Under the pieces are notes generated by a model. That model saw only the letters and a list, made by a program, of their open reading frames with translations, searched no databases and was not told the origin of the DNA. The position numbers were made by a program, and so were the translations under genes. Below are positions 1 to 49,572 of a DNA stretch of 64,000 nucleotides, in pieces (position 1 is the stretch's first letter; each line of letters begins with the position of its first letter). The DNA comes from Pseudomonadota bacterium (GTDB lineage: Bacteria; Pseudomonadota; Alphaproteobacteria; UBA2136; UBA6156): assembly GCA_016125035.1 (NCBI GenBank), contig WGMN01000011.1, positions 17,721 through 81,720 on the forward strand. Reading direction: 5' to 3'.

Positions 1-185
1 ACTATAATTGCCGCCGGCCCATCGGCCAGCACCAGGTGCTGGCAATACTCATAAATCTCGCAAGCCTTGCCGTGGTGTTTGTGGTCTTCAAAACCGTGGG
101 TGGCCACGTGCATAAACGCGGCGGCCTGCACCGCCACAAACATCAAGGCCAGCAGCAGTCCCCAAAAAGAGCGACGCACACGCAT
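1..185 (-). CDS. Small His-rich exported or membrane protein, cut by window edge
   Basis: The reading frame runs off the left edge; 61 codons are visible. It opens with a basic tip and a hydrophobic stretch (residues 7-24, signal peptide or membrane anchor). A metal-ligand-like segment follows, with several His around residues 26-38 and two Cys near 42 and 48. The ATG lies one base after the zur stop codon, so the two genes are probably translated from one message and this one should follow zinc status. The spacing of His and Cys recalls small DUF2946-like periplasmic proteins, but I cannot assign a family from the fragment. Zinc binding or zinc sensing at the envelope is inference from composition and position. 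Confidence 0.6.
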   Translation of the reverse strand, partial: MRVRRSFWGLLLALMFVAVQAAAFMHVATHGFEDHKHHGKACEIYEYCQHLVLADGPAAII

Positions 186-186
186 C

Positions 187-642
187 TCAGGCTTTATCCC
201 GGCAATCGGCGCAACGCCCCACCACTTCCAGGTGGCGGTGGGTCACTTCAAAGTGGTGTTTATGGGCTTCATTCTCCACCTGGCGGTCCAGGGGGGCAGA
301 GCTCACCTCCACCACCTCGCGGCAATCGCCGCACACCAAAAGCTGGCTGGCGTGGGCCTCATCCGGGTGGGGGCAACCGATATAGGCATTCAGGCTGGCC
401 ACTTTATGGATAAACCCGTTCTGCTGCAAAAACTCCAACGCGCGGTAGGTCACCGGCGGCTTGTCGTTTTTCAATTTGTGCATAATTTCAGCGGCACTCA
501 GCGCCTTGTGCCCCTGCCAGATAAGCTTAAGCACCGCACGCCGGGTTTCGGTCAGCCGCAGCCCCCGCTCGGCGCACACACGCTCCACCTGGGCCAGGGC
601 ATCCTTCACGCAGTGGCTGTGGTCGTGGCGGTGGCCCAACAC
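187..642 (-). CDS. zur: Fur-family zinc uptake regulator (Zur)
   Basis: This 151-residue protein has the Fur layout. A winged-helix DNA-binding half occupies about residues 25-80 and includes a TYRALEFL recognition-helix region. The C-terminal half binds metal, with structural zinc pairs Cys104/Cys107 and Cys144/Cys147 and a His cluster at 128-130. The N-terminus is unusually His-rich (His4, 6, 8, 10). The Cys pairs and the HPDEAH-type region resemble Zur more than iron Fur. The start is GTG, three bases after a GGGAGA ribosome site; the adjacent TTG is the alternative. It is divergent from the nicotianamine-synthase-like gene and shares a promoter region containing a TGTTAA-N3-TTAACA-type palindrome, which fits autoregulation and control of that gene. 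Assignment to Zur rather than Fur or PerR rests on motifs and context. Confidence 0.85.
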   Translation of the reverse strand: MLGHRHDHSHCVKDALAQVERVCAERGLRLTETRRAVLKLIWQGHKALSAAEIMHKLKNDKPPVTYRALEFLQQNGFIHKVASLNAYIGCPHPDEAHASQLLVCGDCREVVEVSSAPLDRQVENEAHKHHFEVTHRHLEVVGRCADCRDKA

Positions 643-672
643 TTTCTCCCTAAATAATGGTTGACAGATTAC

Positions 673-687
673 TGTTAATTATTAACA
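673..687. promoter_or_regulatory. Candidate Zur box, zur/metallophore intergenic region
   Basis: TGTTAATTATTAACA is a perfect 15-bp odd palindrome in the 75-bp region between zur and the divergent nicotianamine-synthase-like gene. It has the TGTTA-N5-TAACA layout known for Zur operators. A second palindrome with the same six-base arms lies at 2410-2424. A TTGACA hexamer at 661-666 lies just beside it. Confidence 0.7.
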
Positions 688-717
688 ACAGCAACCGTTA
701 ACTGCAACAACCCTACC

Positions 718-1539
718 ATGACCGCCACCTCAAACCACACCCCTCTCCCCCCTTCTGCCCACGCGGTACGCAAGGTCATGGCCCGGCTTGAAGGCCTGCC
801 CGACCTCACTCCCTCCGCCGCAGCCACTTCGGCCTTCAACTGCCTGGTGGGCATGGCGCGGCGGCGGGTTCCGACCGCGGTGGCGGCAGATATCGTAAGC
901 ACCCTCTCACAAACGGGAGAACTCTCGCGCCTTCACACCCTGTGCGCGCGGGGTGAAGCCGGGCTTGAGCACGCCTGGAGCACCCGCCTCAACACCTCCG
1001 CCAATCCTTCCGCCCTGCTGGCAACCTTCCCTTATATGGCCGAATACCGCACCCTCGTCGCGCAAGAGGTTGCCCTGCTGCGCAAAACCTTTCCTTCCGC
1101 GCAGCGGGTGCTGTTCGTCGGCAGCGGCCCCCTGCCGCTCAGCCCGTGGCTGATGTCCGCACGCCACGGCCTCACCGTCGACATGCTTGATAAAGATGCC
1201 TCCGCCCACCACTGCGCCCTGCCCTGGCTGCAAAAGCTTCCCGGCCACCAAAACCTCCGCTGCCTGCACGCCGACATCCTCCACATGAACAACTTCTCGG
1301 CCTTCCACGCCGTCTTCCTGGGCGCCATGGTGGGCACCACGCAGGATGAAAAACGCACCATCCTCTCCCACCTGCACACAGCCATGCTGCCCGGCCAGCC
1401 CCTGCTGGCCCGCAGTGCAAAAGGGCTGCGCCAGCTGCTCTACCCTCAGCTTCCCGCAGCCGCGGGGTTCAGGCTGGCCGGGTCCACCCGCGCCGGCGGC
1501 AAGGTCATCAACTCCACCCTCCTGCTCATCCGCGTGTAG
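718..1539 (+). CDS. Nicotianamine synthase-like enzyme (opine metallophore, CntL type)
   Basis: The family transfers aminobutanoate units from S-adenosylmethionine: plant and archaeal nicotianamine synthases, and bacterial CntL-type enzymes of staphylopine and pseudopaline synthesis. The 273-residue length fits CntL. Diagnostic segments are an AEYRTLVAQE helix (108-117), the SAM-binding FVGSGPLPLS (133-142), an acidic end of the second strand (Asp160), GAMVGTTQDEK (202-212), RSAKGLRQLLYP (232-243) and VINSTLL (263-269). It sits divergent from zur with a palindromic operator between them, so the product is probably a zinc-scavenging metallophore or an intracellular zinc chelator. No opine dehydrogenase (CntM), exporter or uptake genes lie beside it, so the final product is unknown. 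The ribosome site before the ATG is weak. Confidence 0.82.
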   Translation: MTATSNHTPLPPSAHAVRKVMARLEGLPDLTPSAAATSAFNCLVGMARRRVPTAVAADIVSTLSQTGELSRLHTLCARGEAGLEHAWSTRLNTSANPSALLATFPYMAEYRTLVAQEVALLRKTFPSAQRVLFVGSGPLPLSPWLMSARHGLTVDMLDKDASAHHCALPWLQKLPGHQNLRCLHADILHMNNFSAFHAVFLGAMVGTTQDEKRTILSHLHTAMLPGQPLLARSAKGLRQLLYPQLPAAAGFRLAGSTRAGGKVINSTLLLIRV

Positions 1540-1590: not shown

Positions 1591-2391
1591 CTAAAGGCCG
1601 GCACTCCAGTGCAGGTCTTCACGCCGCCCCACCTTCATGGGGCTGAACATCACCAGGTCCTTTCCCAGGTGGGTGGCCACCAGCCGCTGCATGGCAGGCA
1701 CTCCCAGCAGGGCGCAGGTGTCGTGGCCCAGGCCGGCCGGCACTTCCACCCCTTCGGGCGGCAGTTCGGCGGGCAGGCTGGCCAACCAGGCCTTCCCCCG
1801 GCAAAAGCCGATGTAGCTCAGCTTCCACAACTCGGCCTCGGCCTGCTCTTCGGGCAGGTAGGCTGGCTGGTCGGCATCCACCCAGCGCCAGTACTTGAAC
1901 GCACGGCTCGCCCGGGTGTCCAGCTCTTCCACCGCCGTCTCCGGCAACACGCCGATAACCCCGCCCGGCCCCACGCCCGCCCGGGGCTCATAGGTCTGGG
2001 AGAAGTAGCACTGCAACGCCAGGCGCTTGCCCAGCAGCCCTTGCACCGCCACCTGGTAAAGGGGGCAGGCCGCCAGGCTCAAAACCTCGGCACGCAAGGC
2101 GCCGTCGCCCACGTCGCAACCAATGCAGAAGTAGGGCTGCAACGCCCGGTCGGGCATCTGCTCTTCGCGGTTGCGGGCCTCCAGCACGGCCAGGGTATCC
2201 AGCGCCCGGCCGTACCGATGCTCAAAGCGCCCCATAAAGGCCTCACGCTGCCCGGCGCTGCCCTGCACGCGGTGCATGGGCAGCGTGGTTTTCTTGGAAT
2301 AACGAAGCAACGAAGCCTCCTCACGTTTCAAGCCGGGTAAAGAATCCCGGTGGTGATCCACGCCGCAAACGGGACAAATCTCATGCGTCAT
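1591..2391 (-). CDS. Cys-rich protein of unknown function, probable Zur regulon member
   Basis: I do not recognise this 266-residue soluble protein. An N-terminal CPVC pair (Cys6, Cys9) is followed by a DHH cluster at 12-14. A second CxxC pair lies at Cys89/Cys92 in a FCIGC context, and further single Cys are scattered downstream, so one or more metal sites are likely. There is no signal peptide or membrane segment. It is convergent with the nicotianamine-synthase-like gene, and its promoter region carries a TGTTAA-N3-TTAACA palindrome (2410-2424) with the same arms as the one beside zur. It is therefore a candidate zinc-responsive gene. A role in metallophore processing or as a zinc-independent backup protein is speculation. 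Confidence 0.7.
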   Translation of the reverse strand: MTHEICPVCGVDHHRDSLPGLKREEASLLRYSKKTTLPMHRVQGSAGQREAFMGRFEHRYGRALDTLAVLEARNREEQMPDRALQPYFCIGCDVGDGALRAEVLSLAACPLYQVAVQGLLGKRLALQCYFSQTYEPRAGVGPGGVIGVLPETAVEELDTRASRAFKYWRWVDADQPAYLPEEQAEAELWKLSYIGFCRGKAWLASLPAELPPEGVEVPAGLGHDTCALLGVPAMQRLVATHLGKDLVMFSPMKVGRREDLHWSAGL

Positions 2392-2409: not shown

Positions 2410-2424
2410 TGTTAAAACTTAACA
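2410..2424. promoter_or_regulatory. Candidate second Zur box
   Basis: TGTTAAAACTTAACA has perfect six-base arms and a three-base centre, matching the arms of the 673-687 site. It lies 19 bp upstream of the start of the minus-strand Cys-rich gene and about 50 bp upstream of the plus-strand MscL-helix gene, so it could act on either. Confidence 0.6.
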
Positions 2425-2475: not shown

Positions 2476-2751
2476 ATGTCATTCATTCAGGAATTCAAAA
2501 CCTTCGCCATGCGCGGCAACGTCATCGAACTCGCGGACGGGCAGGGGGCTCTCATCCCCCAAATCCTGCAACTGGTGGGGGTGCCGGGCATCCACGCTGT
2601 AGTGGTTGAAAAACTGGGGCATTCCTTCCAGCTCTACAACTGCTGCGGCGTAAAACCCAAGGAGCGCACAAGCGACACTGAACTCCGCCAAACGGTGTCC
2701 TTCCACACCCAACTGCTCAACCAGGCCAGCAGCGAGCTGATGGACTGTTAA
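2476..2751 (+). CDS. Small protein with MscL-like N-terminal helix, not a channel
   Basis: From the ATG at 2476 the first 20 residues (MSFIQEFKTFAMRGNVIELA) closely match the cytoplasmic amphipathic N-terminal helix of the mechanosensitive channel MscL. The match stops abruptly. The remaining about 70 residues are soluble, with a CC pair (NCCG) and a C-terminal Cys, and contain neither MscL transmembrane helix. None of the frames I checked restores MscL downstream, so this is not a simple frameshift. An upstream in-frame ATG at 2440 would add 12 residues and is less likely. Function is unknown; membrane-surface association through the helix is a reasonable inference. Confidence 0.6.
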   Translation: MSFIQEFKTFAMRGNVIELADGQGALIPQILQLVGVPGIHAVVVEKLGHSFQLYNCCGVKPKERTSDTELRQTVSFHTQLLNQASSELMDC

Positions 2752-2895: not shown

Positions 2896-3396
2896 TTAGG
2901 GCCTCTGCTTGCGCTCTTCAAAAATCCGGTCGATGCGGTCAAGGAGTCGGTAAATATCTTTGCGCAACTGGGCCAGGTCCTTATCCGCACAGCCAACCAC
3001 TTCTTCCTCTCCCAGCAGGGGAAGTTTTTCGTATTTGGCTTCCTCGTGCAAGGCCGCGCCCTTCTTGGTCAGAAAGATCACCACCCGCCGCTTGTCGTCT
3101 TGCGGGCGATGCCTTTCAACCAGCTTCATAGCCTCCAGGCGTTTAAGCAGGGGGGTAAGGGTACCGGTATCCAGGCGCAATAACCGCCCGATGTCGGTCA
3201 CCATCAGGCCATTGTTTTGCCATAGGGCCAGCATCACCAGGTACTGCGGGTAGGTCAGCTTCAACCGCCTCAAAAAAGGGTAGTAAAGTTTAATCAAGGC
3301 GTGGGTGGCGGCATAAAGCGGGAAGCACAACTGGTCTTCCAGCTTCAGGTTGTTAGGGGCCTGTGGTTGAGATGCCATAATAACCGATGATACCAT
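2896..3396 (-). CDS. ohrR: OhrR-type MarR-family organic peroxide sensor
   Basis: This is a MarR-family winged-helix repressor with the OhrR signature. A conserved reactive Cys (Cys24) sits in the LEDQLCFPLYAA motif. It is followed by LTYPQYLVMLALW, the helix-turn-helix region with LDTGTLTPLLKRLE, and a wing with a basic DKRR turn. In the family, oxidation of this Cys by organic hydroperoxides releases repression of ohr. The usual partner gene ohr is not in the window beside it. The start could also be the internal ATG at 3378; no strong ribosome site separates the two choices. Confidence 0.88.
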   Translation of the reverse strand: MVSSVIMASQPQAPNNLKLEDQLCFPLYAATHALIKLYYPFLRRLKLTYPQYLVMLALWQNNGLMVTDIGRLLRLDTGTLTPLLKRLEAMKLVERHRPQDDKRRVVIFLTKKGAALHEEAKYEKLPLLGEEEVVGCADKDLAQLRKDIYRLLDRIDRIFEERKQRP

Positions 3397-3575: not shown

Positions 3576-3702
3576 TAAACATTGTTAAAAACATAAATGC
3601 AACACACCCTAAGGTTGTGTAACCCCCATCGTTTTCATATGAGTTGCGTAAAATATAAGCTGCTTACAAATTATGCATATGACCCTAACAGGATACCCCC
3701 CG

Positions 3703-4194
3703 ATGCACTCCTTCATCTCCTTCCGTAGTGTTGCCAGTCTTACTCTGGCCGCTCTTTCAATTCCGGTTTTTTGCCATGCCGCCAGCACCGGCCAGGTCAC
3801 CATCGTGGCCAGCGTGCCCTCTACCTGCAACATCACTGTCACGCCGCAGGCAGGTGCCACCATCGCCAACCTTACCTTGGGGGCCACCAATCTTCAGGTC
3901 GCCACGGTTAATGAGTCCTGCAACGCGCCCGCCGGTTACACCGTTACCATGGTGGGCACAAACTCCACCGATTACACCGGAAAATTCGTCGACAGCGGCA
4001 GCTCCAGCACCCGCACCTTCACCGTGCGTTATGGCGGCAACACGCTCAACTCCACCCTTGTAACCGATGTAAACAGCCCCAACACCTCGGTCGATAAAAA
4101 CGTCGATATCACCTATCCGGCCGATACCACTCTCACCGCTTCCAGTGGTGCCACCTATGCCGAAACCCTTAACTTCACCATCACGTCTAAGTAG
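3703..4194 (+). CDS. Spore coat U-domain pilin, major subunit candidate
   Basis: This is a secreted subunit of about 163 residues starting at the ATG at 3703 (an in-frame ATG at 3673 is the alternative). A signal peptide ending near FCHA|AS precedes a beta-rich domain with two conserved Cys (in SVPSTCNITV and VNESCNAPAG). It ends in the paired-strand pattern ETLNFTITSK typical of spore coat U (SCPU) pilins. It is the first gene of a chaperone-usher operon, and only one base separates its stop from the chaperone start. In this family the small single-domain protein forms the fibre shaft, assembled by donor-strand exchange in the periplasm and at the outer membrane. Adhesion or biofilm function is inferred from the family. 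Confidence 0.82.
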   Translation: MHSFISFRSVASLTLAALSIPVFCHAASTGQVTIVASVPSTCNITVTPQAGATIANLTLGATNLQVATVNESCNAPAGYTVTMVGTNSTDYTGKFVDSGSSSTRTFTVRYGGNTLNSTLVTDVNSPNTSVDKNVDITYPADTTLTASSGATYAETLNFTITSK

Positions 4195-4195
4195 C

Positions 4196-4927
4196 ATGTT
4201 CAAGTTCGTTGCTTTCTGCCTCTGTCTTATGGCATGGCCTGCTTGGGCCACACCGTCGTTTGGCATCGAGCCCTTCAAAAGCCAACTTGCCCCCGCCGAT
4301 GGCCAGAATACCCAAATCTTCACCCTCACCAACAGCAGCGACGATACCATCGCCGTGCAAATCCATATGGAAAGCTGGTCAACCGATCTCAACGGCCAAG
4401 AGCAAAGCACGGTGGATACCACCAACTTCAGCGTCTATCCAACCCAGTTCGCACTCAAAGCCCACAGCAACCGCACGGTCAGGGTCACATGGCTGGGCCC
4501 CATGCCAGTGCAAACAGAAAAAGCCTTTCGCCTGGTGGCCGAGCAGTTGCCGGTCAACTTCAATCCGGGTGCACCAGAAAACGCGCTGCGCTTCCTCCTG
4601 CGTTACCGCACGGCATTCTATATAGCTCCGTCAACCCCTCGCCAAAAACTGGTGGTGAGCGATTTCCAGCACAACATAAACTCCAACACCTTGGTCTTCA
4701 CACTGGCAAACCAGGGCAACGTCCACGTCATGCTGCACCAGCCGGTGCTCAACCTCACCGATTCTTCGGGGCGAACCCACACGCTTCGTGACGTGCTGGT
4801 AAGAAGCGCGCTGGAAAACAACAACGTGCTCAGCGGCGGCCAAAGGCAGTTCAGCATCCCCTGGCCCAAAGAGATGGGGGACAACCAGCCAAAGGCCCTC
4901 AGTATTGATTACATCGCCGGCTTTTAA
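4196..4927 (+). CDS. Periplasmic pilus chaperone (FimC/PapD family)
   Basis: The protein has about 243 residues from the ATG at 4196. A signal peptide (hydrophobic 3-17, cleaved after WAWA) leads into two immunoglobulin-like domains. The first carries the RTVRV strand motif and a basic cleft residue; the second ends with a paired-strand LSIDYIAGF. The family delivers unfolded pilin subunits to the outer-membrane usher by donating a strand. The open frame extends back to 4145, but that would overlap the pilin, so the ATG right after the pilin stop is preferred. Its 3' end overlaps the usher start by 23 bp, which indicates tight translational coupling. Confidence 0.88.
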   Translation: MFKFVAFCLCLMAWPAWATPSFGIEPFKSQLAPADGQNTQIFTLTNSSDDTIAVQIHMESWSTDLNGQEQSTVDTTNFSVYPTQFALKAHSNRTVRVTWLGPMPVQTEKAFRLVAEQLPVNFNPGAPENALRFLLRYRTAFYIAPSTPRQKLVVSDFQHNINSNTLVFTLANQGNVHVMLHQPVLNLTDSSGRTHTLRDVLVRSALENNNVLSGGQRQFSIPWPKEMGDNQPKALSIDYIAGF

Positions 4928-7433
4928 CGCATGGCCACTGGTGCTCCTGGTGATGTATCTCAGCCTGCTTTCCCCTCCCTGTCTGGGGCAGCAGGTATCG
5001 TCAAGCGAGCCCTCCGGCCTTAATCACCTGCCTTTGTTTCTTGACGGGGCTCAAATCGCCACGCTGTCGGTCCAGCAGGATGAAAACGGGATAAAGGCCA
5101 ACACCCAACAGGCCATCACCGCTCTCAAGCCCATCCTTCTGCCAGAAGCCCTGGGCCTGCTCGAAGGCCTGCTGGAAGACGATGCCTGGTGGCCGGTCAA
5201 CACGCCCCATGCCGGGGTGGAAATTGCCTACGACCCTCAAAACGTTGCGCTCATCCTCAATGCTCCGCGCTTCGTGCGTAACCCCACCCGTTACTCTGCT
5301 TCTCCTCCCTCTTCCGCTCCGCTGGGGCGCCTGGTTTCCCCCAGTCCGCTTTCCGCGTACCTGAATATTTACGCCGCACAAAATCACCTGAGCGGCTTTG
5401 GCGCCGATGACGGCCGCCAGCCCCTGCGGCTAGATTTCGACGGCGCGATCAACCTGCGCGGATGGGTGCTGGAAAGCCAGGCCGGCTACACCGAAGATGC
5501 CGCCAATCCCTTAACCTTGCGCAACACCCGGCTGGTGCATGACGACACGCAAAACCTCATCCGTTACCAGGTGGGAGAACTCAGCTACCCCACCTCTGGG
5601 TTTCAAGGGTTCACGCAGCTGCTGGGGGTGGGCATGGCACGCAATTTTCTGCTCCAGCCTTACCGGGTAACCCAACCGGTGGGGCAAACGCGCTTTGTGC
5701 TTGAAAGTCCTGCCACGGTGGATGTCCTGGTTAACGACGTCAAAGTCAAAAGCCTGCAACTTCCGGCCGGCACTTACCAGTTATCCGATTTCCCGGTCAT
5801 CAGCGGCGCCAACAACGTGCGCCTGATCATCACCGACAACGCCGGCCGGGTGGAAGAGAAAGACCTCTCCATCCTCACCGACGGCACATTGCTCAAAGCC
5901 GGCCTGGCCGAGTTCACCGCCAACGCCGGCGTGCCGGTCGATCCTCTCTCCACCTCGCGCGCTTATCAAACCAACAAACCGCAAATTTCGGCACTGTTAC
6001 GCTACGGGCTCACCGATACCTACACCGCCGGCGTCAACATACAGGGCGGCGCCGAACAACAGCTTTTCGGCCTCGGCCAAACCCTGGCCGGCCCGCTGGG
6101 CCTGTTTCACCTTGAAAGCGCGCTCAGCCGCGCCCGGGGGCAGGGGGGGCTTGCCGATAACTGGGACGGTGGCGCCCGCCTGGAATACCGCCTGCTCACC
6201 GATAACGCCCGGCCGAACGATCTCCCGCCGGATGCCTGGCAGGCTGCTGTGGAATACCAAGGTTCTGCCTTCAATGTTCCAGCAGGGCAAACCAACACCT
6301 CCGGCCTGCAACTGCAAAGCAGCTACAACCATGCTTTTACCGAAAAGCTCTCCTTGCTGTTTGGCAGCTCCTACCGTTTTGCTTCCGGCTCTGTGGAGGA
6401 TGACTACCGCACCAATCTCACCTTCAGCTACCGCCCGCGCTCCAACTGGGTCATCACAATCGATAACGCCATCAGCCTGCGCGATCATTTCAGCGTGCTT
6501 GCCAACATCACCTGGTTCCCCTGGCGCAGTAACGAGGTAGCAAGCGCCGGCTATGATTCTCAAAGCCGCACCCTGCGCAGCTCCTATACCCGTTACCGCG
6601 CGGCCAATACCGGGTGGGATACCGGCTTGGAGGTGGAACACACGCCGTATGGAGAGAATATCGGTGGCAACCTCGGCTACACCGGCATCCGCGGCACCGC
6701 GCGGCTGCAAAGTGAGCGGCGCACCACGCTCGACGGCAAAGCGGGCACCTCCACGCAGGTAAATCTGGCCACTGCCGTGGCCTATGCAGGCGGCAACGTG
6801 GCGCTCAGCCATCCCATTAACAACAGCTTTGCCATCGTTGTACCGGTCAAGGGCACCACTCGTGGAAGGCTCTTGCTCAACCCCAACACTCTAGACGATG
6901 GCGAAACCACCGATGAAGGCCACAGCGGCCCATTCGGTCCTGCCGTTCTTACCGACCTCTCTCCTTATACTTACCGTTATGTTCAGGCAAACATCGCCAA
7001 TGCTTCCACTCCAGAGCGCGATAACTTCGTGCTCTTTCCCAGTTATAAAAGCGGCACGCGCGTGCGGGTGGGTCGCCCTCACCTGGCCGAGGTGGAAGGT
7101 TATTTAGACGACGCCGACGACAAACCGCTGTCCTACATCGCCGCCAACGTCAATACGCAACGCGGTTCCCGCGCCGCCGCGGTGGTCGATGATTCCGACA
7201 TCGAGCCCGCCGCCGGCCCCATCGACCTTCCCTTCACCTTCACCAACAAAGACGGCTTTTTCCATATCGATGACCTCCCCCCCGGCACCTACCGCCTGGC
7301 CATGCCGGATAACGACCAGGGCACGTTCGAGTTCACCGTGCCCGAACACGTCTCCGGCACCATCGATCTTGGCCACCGCCGCCTCAACGTGCGCGCCGGG
7401 CACCAAAGCGCCGCCGCCGAGGCCGTGCCATGA
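4905..7433 (+). CDS. Outer-membrane pilus usher (FimD/PapC family)
   Basis: This 842-residue usher forms the outer-membrane pore through which pilus subunits are polymerised. A signal peptide ends near CLGQQ. An N-terminal chaperone-binding domain follows, then a 24-strand barrel region rich in aromatic alternating strands (about 150-680) with a plug segment after the first strands. The C-terminal domains end in a DLPPGTYRLAMP motif (around residue 795). The chosen start is TTG at 4905, inside the chaperone gene; ATG at 4953 is possible but would remove part of the signal peptide. The stop overlaps the next start in ATGA. Length is near the lower end for ushers, as is usual in SCPU-type operons. 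Confidence 0.88.
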   Translation: MITSPAFNAWPLVLLVMYLSLLSPPCLGQQVSSSEPSGLNHLPLFLDGAQIATLSVQQDENGIKANTQQAITALKPILLPEALGLLEGLLEDDAWWPVNTPHAGVEIAYDPQNVALILNAPRFVRNPTRYSASPPSSAPLGRLVSPSPLSAYLNIYAAQNHLSGFGADDGRQPLRLDFDGAINLRGWVLESQAGYTEDAANPLTLRNTRLVHDDTQNLIRYQVGELSYPTSGFQGFTQLLGVGMARNFLLQPYRVTQPVGQTRFVLESPATVDVLVNDVKVKSLQLPAGTYQLSDFPVISGANNVRLIITDNAGRVEEKDLSILTDGTLLKAGLAEFTANAGVPVDPLSTSRAYQTNKPQISALLRYGLTDTYTAGVNIQGGAEQQLFGLGQTLAGPLGLFHLESALSRARGQGGLADNWDGGARLEYRLLTDNARPNDLPPDAWQAAVEYQGSAFNVPAGQTNTSGLQLQSSYNHAFTEKLSLLFGSSYRFASGSVEDDYRTNLTFSYRPRSNWVITIDNAISLRDHFSVLANITWFPWRSNEVASAGYDSQSRTLRSSYTRYRAANTGWDTGLEVEHTPYGENIGGNLGYTGIRGTARLQSERRTTLDGKAGTSTQVNLATAVAYAGGNVALSHPINNSFAIVVPVKGTTRGRLLLNPNTLDDGETTDEGHSGPFGPAVLTDLSPYTYRYVQANIANASTPERDNFVLFPSYKSGTRVRVGRPHLAEVEGYLDDADDKPLSYIAANVNTQRGSRAAAVVDDSDIEPAAGPIDLPFTFTNKDGFFHIDDLPPGTYRLAMPDNDQGTFEFTVPEHVSGTIDLGHRRLNVRAGHQSAAAEAVP

Positions 7434-8404
7434 GACAACGGCTCGTCTGGCTCATACTCTTCATCCTGGCGGCGGGGCAGGCGCACGCGGTGTGCCTCAA
7501 CCTCAGCATCATCAATATCACCGGCGGGCAGGTGTTCACCGGCTCTGGCGGCGGCTACCAACCATATGATACCTCCGAGTACCTCAAAACCGTCAGCTTC
7601 GATGTCCAGGCCCAGGTCAGCATTGCCGCCTGCCCGTATTTTGTGGTGCTTCGCACGGGGCAATCAGGCAGCGCCTCGGCCCGAGAGCTCTGGCGCGGAA
7701 GCAGCGCCAACAAACTCAACTACCAGGCTTATATCGACTCTACTAAAGCCAATATCCTGCGCGACTCCGCCACCGCCAACACCAGCACCGCCATCACCGG
7801 CAACTTCGCGGTGCTGGGCGGCACCCAAACCAACCACCACAGCTTTGTGTGGACTGTCCCGGCAGGGCAGGTGGCAGCCGCCAACGCCAGCCCTTATGCC
7901 GACAACGGCGTGGTGCTGGAAGTATGGGAAGGGGTGCTCGGCTTGCTGCCTGTGCTGCGTAACACCGCCACGCTTAATTTCTCCACCACGGTGCTTAGCA
8001 GTGTCGATGTCGCGGTGGTCGGCACTGGTAGCCCCTTTGCCATCGGCAGCACATCGCGCAACGTCAACTTCGGCACCGCCAGCAGCGGGGCCCAGCAAAA
8101 CTTCGATCTCTCCATCCGCAGCAATGACGGCTACCAAATTTCCATGCAGTCGGCCAACGGGCAAAAGCTCAAGCACAGCATCAGTTCGGTCTCCACCACC
8201 ATCCCCTACACCATCACCGTCAGCGGCACGTCGCAAAACCTTTCCTCCGGCGGGGCGGTCACCGTGGCCACCAGCGCCAGCGGCGCCACCACGCCGGCCA
8301 TCGGCACTAATATTCCTGTGCGCGTCACCTTGGGCACTCTTAGCGGCGCGGAAACGTCGGGTAATTATAACGATACCCTCAGCCTCTCCATCACCGCCCA
8401 CTAA
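7430..8404 (+). CDS. Two-domain spore coat U pilus tip protein or adhesin
   Basis: This secreted protein has 324 residues, with a signal peptide ending at GQAHA. An N-terminal domain (about 20-180) is distinct from the shaft subunit. The C-terminal domain (about 195-324) has the SCPU pilin pattern (VNFGTASSG, SGNYNDTLSLSITAH). Ser and Thr are abundant. As the last gene of the operon and translationally coupled to the usher, it is the probable tip subunit. Receptor and ligand are unknown. A regular pilin role is the alternative, but the extra domain argues for a tip. Confidence 0.78.
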   Translation: MRQRLVWLILFILAAGQAHAVCLNLSIINITGGQVFTGSGGGYQPYDTSEYLKTVSFDVQAQVSIAACPYFVVLRTGQSGSASARELWRGSSANKLNYQAYIDSTKANILRDSATANTSTAITGNFAVLGGTQTNHHSFVWTVPAGQVAAANASPYADNGVVLEVWEGVLGLLPVLRNTATLNFSTTVLSSVDVAVVGTGSPFAIGSTSRNVNFGTASSGAQQNFDLSIRSNDGYQISMQSANGQKLKHSISSVSTTIPYTITVSGTSQNLSSGGAVTVATSASGATTPAIGTNIPVRVTLGTLSGAETSGNYNDTLSLSITAH

Positions 8405-49284: not shown

Positions 49285-49327
49285 CCAGTAACCGGTCACT
49301 GTTAACTAGTCACTGTTAACTGTTAAC
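49279..49327. repeat. Seven tandem heptamers across two gene ends
   Basis: The units read CAGTAAC, CAGTAAC, CGGTCAC, TGTTAAC, TAGTCAC, TGTTAAC, TGTTAAC with strict 7-bp period. The array supplies the stop codon of the methyltransferase gene and the last codons and stop of grxC. Confidence 0.85.
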
Positions 49328-49572
49328 ATCCCTTCCAACTCCCCCGCACTGTGCAACGCATACAGGTCGTCACACCCGCCAATGCCTTTGCCGCCAATAA
49401 ATATCTGCGGCATGGTGCGCGCGCTCGGCCGGCGCTCCAGCAGTTCGGCCATTTTCTCCGGCTGGCGGCTCACATCAATCTCCTCATACTCCGCGCCCAG
49501 CTGGCCCAGCAGCATTTTGGCCTTGGTGCAGTAGGGGCAATAATCCTTGGTGTAGATTTCAACCTTGGCCAT
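49306..49572 (-). CDS. grxC: Glutaredoxin (GrxC type)
   Basis: The protein has 88 residues from the ATG at 49572. It has the dithiol active site DYCPYCTKAK (Cys11, Cys14), the glutathione-binding TMPQIFI with cis-Pro and the IGGCDDL motif. It reduces protein disulfides with glutathione. A GGGAGG ribosome site precedes the start. The final residues (LTVNSD) and stop come from the heptamer array, so the natural C-terminus has been replaced or extended. Confidence 0.93.
   Translation of the reverse strand: MAKVEIYTKDYCPYCTKAKMLLGQLGAEYEEIDVSRQPEKMAELLERRPSARTMPQIFIGGKGIGGCDDLYALHSAGELEGMLTVNSD

What the first reader, a model, noticed from the sequence alone, without database searches (positions are those of the whole stretch)
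187..1539. Zur repressor divergent from a nicotianamine-synthase-like (opine metallophore) gene
A CntL/nicotianamine-synthase family enzyme with all main motifs lies head to head with zur across a 75-bp region holding a perfect TGTTAATTATTAACA palindrome. No opine dehydrogenase, exporter or TonB receptor is adjacent, so the product may be nicotianamine-like itself or be finished by unlinked genes. This would be a minimal zinc-chelator locus.
Basis: partly seen in the sequence, partly recalled or inferred. Interest (0 to 1): 0.85.

Follow-up and report, generated by a model that had tools for sequence, protein, structure and literature searches.

The report
Zinc-switched bacterial nicotianamine synthase
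In an uncultivated alphaproteobacterium, the gene for an enzyme of the nicotianamine-synthase family, from the same group as the plant enzyme, lies head to head with the zinc-sensor gene zur across one shared palindrome that Zur likely binds, so the cell is predicted to make a nicotianamine-like zinc-binding molecule when zinc runs short, and searches of its incomplete genome found no trace of the dehydrogenase used to finish known bacterial zincophores of this type.

Summary
The 273-aa protein is a nicotianamine synthase (NAS) family member (PF03059, 137.6 bits; predicted fold closest to MtNAS), divergent from zur over 75 bp holding TGTTAATTATTAACA. That palindrome is very probably the Zur operator: TGTTAANNNTTAACA occurs perfectly only three times in the 1.45-Mb assembly, and a copy (with one mismatch in one genome) lies upstream of zur in all six other Zur-bearing genomes among the 18 order genomes searched.

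The interpretation needs correcting. The window edge cuts the zur operon, which continues into a MacB/Zrg-like ABC pair and a DUF3299 protein, so the locus is not minimal. The NAS is not CntL-like: it groups with plant NAS, has the counterparts of AtNAS1 E73, E77 and Y106, and carries a VGTT insert at the VGMD site; the CntL and archaeal enzymes compared lack E73 and the insert. Searches found no opine dehydrogenase, TonB plug or ZnuA in the assembly.

Best reading: Zur-repressed synthesis of nicotianamine, or something close to it, as an endogenous zinc ligand. Product and place of action are inferred. A second operator lies before a gene of a Zur-linked family of unknown function. New variant of a known kind.

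The parts
187..642 (-). zur, zinc uptake regulator (Fur family); the only Fur-family protein found in the assembly
   Evidence: Two CxxC pairs conserved with the solved zinc uptake regulator 4mtd.
673..687 (.). Zur operator (predicted), TGTTAATTATTAACA
   Evidence: same palindrome upstream of zur in the six other Zur-bearing genomes of the 18 order genomes searched.
661..666 (+). TTGACA box 6 bp before the operator, pointing at NAS (putative -35)
   Evidence: same module pointing at the zur-divergent gene in four relatives. A generic promoter scan of 560-2600 found no full promoter match.
718..1539 (+). Nicotianamine synthase family gene, 273 aa, plant-type group
1..185 (-). Part of a 97-aa His-containing membrane-protein gene that starts 1 bp after the zur stop and runs off the window; beyond it the operon has a 52-aa secreted-looking peptide, ABC ATPase, MacB/FtsX-like permease and DUF3299 protein (window coordinates about -159 to -2765)
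   Evidence: L011 8891-9184, 8662-8820, 8020-8658, 6818-8017, 6234-6806.
2410..2424 (.). Second operator (predicted), TGTTAAAACTTAACA, between two divergent genes
1591..2391 (-). 266-aa protein of unknown function with an invariant CxxC; its homologue is the gene directly upstream of zur in G005. Start uncertain: the database record P0024 has 239 aa
2476..2751 (+). Small ORF divergent from the 266-aa gene across the second operator; MscL-like first residues, then a stretch like the C-terminus of distant relatives of the 266-aa protein
   Evidence: MscL 23.1 bits and PF20704 19.7 bits, both below cut-off.

Best explanation
A nicotianamine-synthase-family gene of the plant-type group and zur share one operator that zinc-loaded Zur likely binds, so the enzyme is predicted to be made when zinc is scarce and would turn S-adenosylmethionine into nicotianamine, or something close to it, as the cell's own zinc ligand. 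Shown by sequence: the family, the group, the counterparts of the catalytic residues, the palindrome and its conservation in front of zur in the order genomes searched, the zur operon with a MacB-like ABC pair and a DUF3299 protein, and searches of the 91% complete assembly that found no opine dehydrogenase, TonB plug or ZnuA. Inferred: Zur covers the promoter behind the TTGACA box, shuts both directions and lets go when zinc falls; NAS then joins aminobutyrate units of S-adenosylmethionine without a histidine starter; the product works inside the cell, buffering or handing on scarce zinc, because no TonB receptor was found to bring back a secreted complex. Untested: expression, product, metal and place of action.
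For: NAS family and fold (AlphaFold model pLDDT 93.2; MtNAS TM 0.83 against 0.65-0.68 for the best-fitting CntL chains). Residues C76, E80, E84, Y110 and V-G of VGTT align with C69, E73, E77, Y106 and V-G of VGMD in AtNAS1; PMC10248798 reports E77 and Y106 as essential, and E73 and VGMD as required and conserved among plant NAS (passages). MtNAS and S. aureus CntL lack the E73 counterpart and have a 4-residue gap at VGMD. The window's clade and AtNAS1 fall in one group (91/89 in 73 rows; 95/84 in 34 rows). Operator conserved upstream of 7 of 7 zur genes and TTGACA-operator module pointing at the zur-divergent gene in 5 of 7. Opine dehydrogenase 0 of 8 NAS-bearing order genomes; TonB plug none in G000. 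On a separate contig (L070) a FUR-family gene is divergent from a CobW-domain GTPase gene that overlaps a NAS gene.
Against: VGTT, not VGMD, at the insert. Glu at the E73 site is in 81 of 86 NAS rows, so alone it marks only the difference from CntL and the archaeal row. NAS of G001, G005 and G008 has no operator directly upstream. Relatives G001, G003 and G005 carry a GNAT gene near NAS and P0014 is a NAS-GNAT fusion, so the product may be modified elsewhere; G000 has no match to this GNAT. The co-regulated MacB-like ABC pair could mean export. Zur is below the NCBIfam cut-off. The genome is 91% complete.
Confidence: 0.5

Rival explanations
1. A secreted zincophore: the NAS product is exported by the co-regulated MacB-like ABC pair, crosses the outer membrane through porins because it is small, and its zinc complex returns through an amino-acid-type ABC importer.
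For: MacB-like permease and ATPase in the zur operon; the related PA4063-PA4066 operon is read as a MacB-type exporter (PMC11481552, passages). An ABC system with four tandem amino-acid-type binding proteins lies convergent to the operon's end.
Against: No TonB plug found; the importer genes have no palindrome of this kind; the related Zrg system is read as an importer with its own zinc-binding protein (PMC9820375, passages).
Confidence: 0.25
2. A CntL-like amino-acid-starter enzyme whose product is finished by an unlinked enzyme (an unrecognised dehydrogenase or an acyltransferase).
For: Known bacterial NAS-like enzymes use His starters (PMC7438024 and PMC10248798, passages). GNAT genes lie near NAS in three relatives and are fused to it in P0014.
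Against: Residues and trees place it away from CntL; no PF10100 match, with two strong matches in other genomes of the same search; no match to this GNAT in G000.
Confidence: 0.15
3. The operator serves zur alone; NAS is a chance neighbour with constitutive or other control.
For: Among the order genomes with a located NAS, only this one has it beside zur; NAS of G001, G005 and G008 has no operator directly upstream.
Against: The TTGACA-N6-operator module points at NAS, as at the zur-divergent gene of four relatives (N6 in three, N7 in one). In G008 NAS is divergent from, and in G005 about 1 kb from, the membrane-protein gene that is divergent from zur in G001 and G015. G008 has no FUR match at all, so no operator is expected there.
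Confidence: 0.1

Closest known systems
Plant and fungal nicotianamine synthase (AtNAS1 type)
   Same: Same family and group; E73, E77, Y106 counterparts and an insert at VGMD; short core form without the plant C-terminal extension
   Different: Bacterial, beside zur; VGTT for VGMD; activity unknown
Opine zincophore systems (staphylopine, pseudopaline, bacillopaline, yersinopine)
   Same: NAS-family enzyme under predicted zinc control; pseudopaline genes are Zur-controlled (PMC6103462, passages)
   Different: No CntM-type dehydrogenase and no TonB plug found; NAS not of the CntL kind
Archaeal thermonicotianamine synthase (MtNAS)
   Same: Closest solved fold (TM 0.83) and catalytic Glu and Tyr
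   Different: MtNAS has Gly at the E73 site and lacks the insert
Zrg system of Vibrio / PA4063-PA4066 of P. aeruginosa
   Same: Zur-linked LolD/MacB-like ABC pair with a DUF3299 protein that matches the solved hypothetical protein 4hsp
   Different: No ZrgA-like protein recognised beside it; zur is the first gene; a NAS gene is divergent

Membership tests
Nicotianamine synthase family (PF03059) | Profile score over the curated cut-off | tested here: met
   137.6 bits against 27.1
Nicotianamine synthase family (PF03059) | Catalytic Glu (E77/E81) and Tyr (Y106/Y107) | tested here: met
   E84 and Y110
Nicotianamine-forming (plant-type) NAS | E73 counterpart | tested here: met
   E80; absent in MtNAS and S. 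aureus CntL
Nicotianamine-forming (plant-type) NAS | 206-VGMD-209 motif | tested here: inconclusive
   Insert present as VGTT; M and D not kept
Nicotianamine-forming (plant-type) NAS | Makes nicotianamine from S-adenosylmethionine | not testable with these tools
   Needs the purified enzyme
Opine zincophore gene cluster | NAS directly upstream of a CntM-type dehydrogenase | tested here: not met
   No PF10100 match in G000; 3 of 13 genomes outside the order ring
Opine zincophore gene cluster | Import and efflux systems nearby | tested here: inconclusive
   MacB-like ABC pair and an amino-acid-type ABC importer nearby; no TonB plug in the assembly
Zur | Fur-family fold and Zn-binding Cys pairs | tested here: met
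   PF01475 47 bits; both CxxC pairs align with 4mtd
Zur | NCBIfam Zur equivalog score | tested here: not met
   103.8 bits against 167, but best of all models; a strict cut-off built on another lineage
Zur | Zinc-dependent binding to its operator | not testable with these tools
   Only the conservation of the palindrome was tested
Zrg / PA4063-PA4066 system | ABC ATPase and MacB-like permease | tested here: met
Zrg / PA4063-PA4066 system | DUF3299 (ZrgE/PA4066-like) protein | tested here: met
   PF11736 36.1 bits; 4hsp 28.1 bits. That 4hsp is PA4066 is inferred
Zrg / PA4063-PA4066 system | ZrgA (PA4063) zinc-binding protein | tested here: inconclusive
   The 97-aa gene has no PDB match; the genome was not searched for ZrgA

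The most novel reading that the evidence does not exclude
Some bacteria make plant-type nicotianamine itself, with one enzyme switched directly by Zur, as a built-in zinc ligand: a zinc-starvation strategy outside the opine zincophore route, in a lineage with no ZnuA found and, in this genome, no TonB receptor found; and the bacterial group that uses it is the one in which the plant enzymes lie.
Probability: 0.4. Interest if true: 0.78.

Novelty: new variant of a known kind. Interest (0 to 1): 0.62.

Why it matters
The bacterial NAS-like enzymes described in the passages read here make an intermediate that an opine dehydrogenase finishes, and the main survey of such clusters started from that dehydrogenase (PMC7438024). 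A Zur-linked NAS with plant-type residues and no dehydrogenase found gives a one-enzyme test of whether bacteria make nicotianamine as their own zinc ligand, and bears on where the plant pathway comes from. The conserved operator also outlines a Zur regulon, with an unknown CxxC family, for an order in which no ZnuA was found.

Tried and rejected
The search for related loci with the single protein confirmed no relative in genome contigs; the alignment found 46 loci. The third perfect palindrome (49314-49328) lies at the 3' end of a glutaredoxin-like gene beside direct repeats, not in a promoter, so it was not counted as an operator. The fourth, one-mismatch site (L037) was read only as an ORF list. 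The generic promoter scan found nothing, and its single terminator-like hairpin (1559-1578, between the convergent ends of NAS and the 266-aa gene) is no more than the shuffles give (1.9). The sister relation of AtNAS1 to the window's clade in the 73-row tree (96/85) was not recovered in the 34-row tree and is not claimed. The first PF10100 search had no ringing control and was repeated with other genomes. The fold of the 266-aa protein (pLDDT 78.7) matched nothing (53 matches, none with E of 0.001 or less). tblastn of plasmids with the MacB-like permease gave only matches under 60% identity (117 of 117 records). The ZevAB paper search listed no primary ZevAB paper. An early note of mine gives a 4-bp overlap between zur and the 97-aa gene and 17 order genomes; rechecked, the 97-aa gene starts 1 bp after the zur stop and the order genomes are 18 with the window's own.

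Full report
OBSERVATION. The window lies at G000:C17:17721-81720 of a 1.45-Mb, 18-contig, 91% complete genome.

THE OPERATOR. TGTTAANNNTTAACA, up to one mismatch, has four sites in the assembly (three perfect), none for the reversed control. FUR-family proteins occur in 8 of 18 genomes of the order searched. One of these (G004) was set aside because it lies beside a catalase-peroxidase-like gene (by eye), aligns poorly with the others and has no box. Seven are Zur-like, and all seven have the palindrome upstream: perfect in G000, G009 (two), G011 and G015 (two); in G016 one perfect and one with one mismatch; in G001 one with one mismatch; in G005 one perfect and one with one mismatch, in front of a homologue of the window's 266-aa gene that precedes zur in the same direction. 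TTGACA, 6 bp, then the operator occurs in G000, G009, G015 and G016 (there with the one-mismatch box); with 7 bp in G001 (5 of 7). It points each time at the gene divergent from zur: NAS in G000, a distant relative of the 266-aa protein in G009, and a small membrane protein (motif CCGIP) in G001 and G015, with a weaker match (30%) in G016. NAS thus occupies the slot of a zur-divergent gene.

WHAT LIES LEFT OF THE WINDOW. Reading the contig further (L011, identical to the window where they overlap), zur is followed, 1 bp after its stop, by a 97-aa His-containing membrane protein, then a 52-aa secreted-looking peptide, an ABC ATPase (best NCBIfam model LolD, below cut-off), a MacB/FtsX-like permease and a DUF3299 protein. 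This resembles Vibrio zrgABCDE and P. aeruginosa PA4063-PA4066, read as a zinc importer (PMC9820375, passages) or as a MacB-type exporter (PMC11481552, passages). DUF3299 is in no other of the 18 order genomes; G018 of the class rings, 0 of 14 controls do. A NicO protein is in 6 of 6 other Zur-like genomes, 0 of 11 order genomes without a Zur-like gene, and not in G000. In G001, G011, G015 and G016 it follows zur with a DUF1007-type protein, an arrangement like ZevAB (named as a zinc system in PMC8000910, passages; that ZevA is DUF1007 and ZevB NicO-like is recalled). G000 seems to have another transporter behind zur. ZnuA is absent from 18 of 18 order genomes, with 11 of 14 controls ringing.

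THE ENZYME. Profile, fold and PDB matches put it in the NAS family, nearest MtNAS. Of 86 NAS rows aligned (the count is mine from its output), 81 have Glu at AtNAS1 E73; the exceptions are the two CntL proteins beside CntM (V, L), the archaeal row (G), P0008 (G) and one fragment. The VG insert at VGMD is in 49 of 86, including the window (VGTT) and AtNAS1. S. aureus CntL and MtNAS lack both in the PDB alignments. PMC10248798 (passages) reports E77 and Y106 as essential, and E73 and VGMD as conserved among plant NAS and required in AtNAS1. In a 73-row tree (13 of 86 rows dropped first; its bootstrap had not settled) and a 34-row tree (34 of 86 chosen, without the CntL pair), the window's clade and AtNAS1 fall in one group apart from the archaeal-like rows, with branch support 91/89 and 95/84; the CntL pair of the first tree is outside with 100/100. 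The exact sister of the plant row is not stable. PMC10248798 itself placed its bacterial NAS outside the seed-plant enzymes; whether it held sequences of the window's kind was not seen.

DISTRIBUTION AND PARTNERS. NAS occurs in 10 of 61 genomes and 14 of 385 of the class, 11 over cut-off. In the family f1 it is in 6 of 11; five are of the window's type and one (G002) of the other type, as are G013 and G017 of the same order. A GNAT acetyltransferase gene overlaps NAS by 4 bp in G001, lies within about 1.5 kb in G003 and G005, on another contig in G008 and, with a stop in its frame, in G009, where no NAS was found; a GNAT domain is fused to NAS in P0014. G000 has no match to it. The CCGIP protein is divergent from NAS in G008 and about 1 kb from it in G005, there with a one-mismatch operator at its start. 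G008 and its three congeners have no FUR match, which would explain the missing operator there. On a separate contig of an unnamed uncultured bacterium (L070), a FUR-family gene is divergent from a CobW-domain GTPase gene that overlaps a NAS gene: a second tie between a FUR-type regulator and NAS, here with a presumed metal chaperone.

ABSENCES. PF10100 opine dehydrogenase: 0 of 8 order genomes with NAS, while 3 of the 13 other genomes in the same search ring, two strongly and one as a fragment; 0 of 14 controls ring. TonB plug: none in G000, with matches in 10 of the 21 genomes and 3 of 14 controls. The genome is incomplete, so these are strong hints, not proofs.

MECHANISM. With zinc, Zur likely sits behind the TTGACA box and shuts both directions. 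Without zinc, NAS, zur with its ABC genes, and the 266-aa gene would come on. A single plant-type NAS with no finishing enzyme found would make nicotianamine or a close relative. Because no TonB receptor was found and L070 pairs NAS with a GTPase of the CobW kind, an intracellular zinc buffer or carrier is favoured; export through the MacB-like pair is the main rival.

SECOND OPERATOR. 2410-2424 begins 19 bases before the annotated start (2391) of the 266-aa gene. Relatives (P0025, P0026; distant P0027-P0030) share an invariant CxxC. Of the proteins scanned, none of the window's gene, the G005 and G009 relatives, P0027 and P0028 reaches a Pfam cut-off, and P0030 reaches that of PF20704 narrowly (30.3 against 27). 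The model matches no known fold. Its place next to zur in G005 and, distantly, G009 marks it as a probable regulon member of unknown function.

LITERATURE. Searches for bacterial nicotianamine synthase with Zur, CobW, plant origin or without opine dehydrogenase listed, in the rows shown, the known opine systems and plant work, and no title or abstract that describes this arrangement. The 2020 survey started from CntM and says that zincophores without it would be missed (PMC7438024, abstract and passages). The library holds open-licence papers only.

Noticed in passing
window 2476-2751 (+): An ORF whose first residues look like the start of MscL and whose rest looks like the C-terminus of distant relatives (P0030, G009) of the neighbouring 266-aa protein: a chimera or remnant across the second operator.
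   Followed up: partly
L011 1296-6209 (+), left of the window: Four tandem paralogous ORFs, the one scanned a family-3 (amino-acid type) solute-binding protein, with one permease and one ATPase, convergent to the end of the zur operon.
   Followed up: partly
L013 3134-4518; L012 9278-12093; P0014: NAS paired with a GNAT acetyltransferase (4-bp overlap, neighbours, or one fused protein), hinting at an acylated nicotianamine-like product.
   Followed up: partly
L070 5720-8801: FUR-family gene divergent from a CobW-domain GTPase gene that overlaps a NAS gene in an uncultured bacterium.
   Followed up: partly
L055 8785-10053; L089 8846-9730: NAS followed by an ATP-grasp gene in Jiangella (62 bits) and, weakly (below cut-off), in an alphaproteobacterial assembly: possible ligated nicotianamine-like products.
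   Followed up: no
window 49314-49328: Third perfect copy of the palindrome, with partial direct repeats, at the 3' end of a glutaredoxin-like gene; probably not an operator.
   Followed up: partly
window 3673-8404: By eye a chaperone-usher pilus cluster (subunit, chaperone, usher, tip-like protein), beside a MarR gene most like OhrR (2896-3396 -, below cut-off).
   Followed up: no
L012 7849-8277, L014 914-1447, L103 878-1321, L108 879-1343: A small membrane protein with CCGIP and Cys/His-rich parts, no Pfam family, divergent from zur or near NAS in relatives: another probable Zur regulon member.
   Followed up: partly
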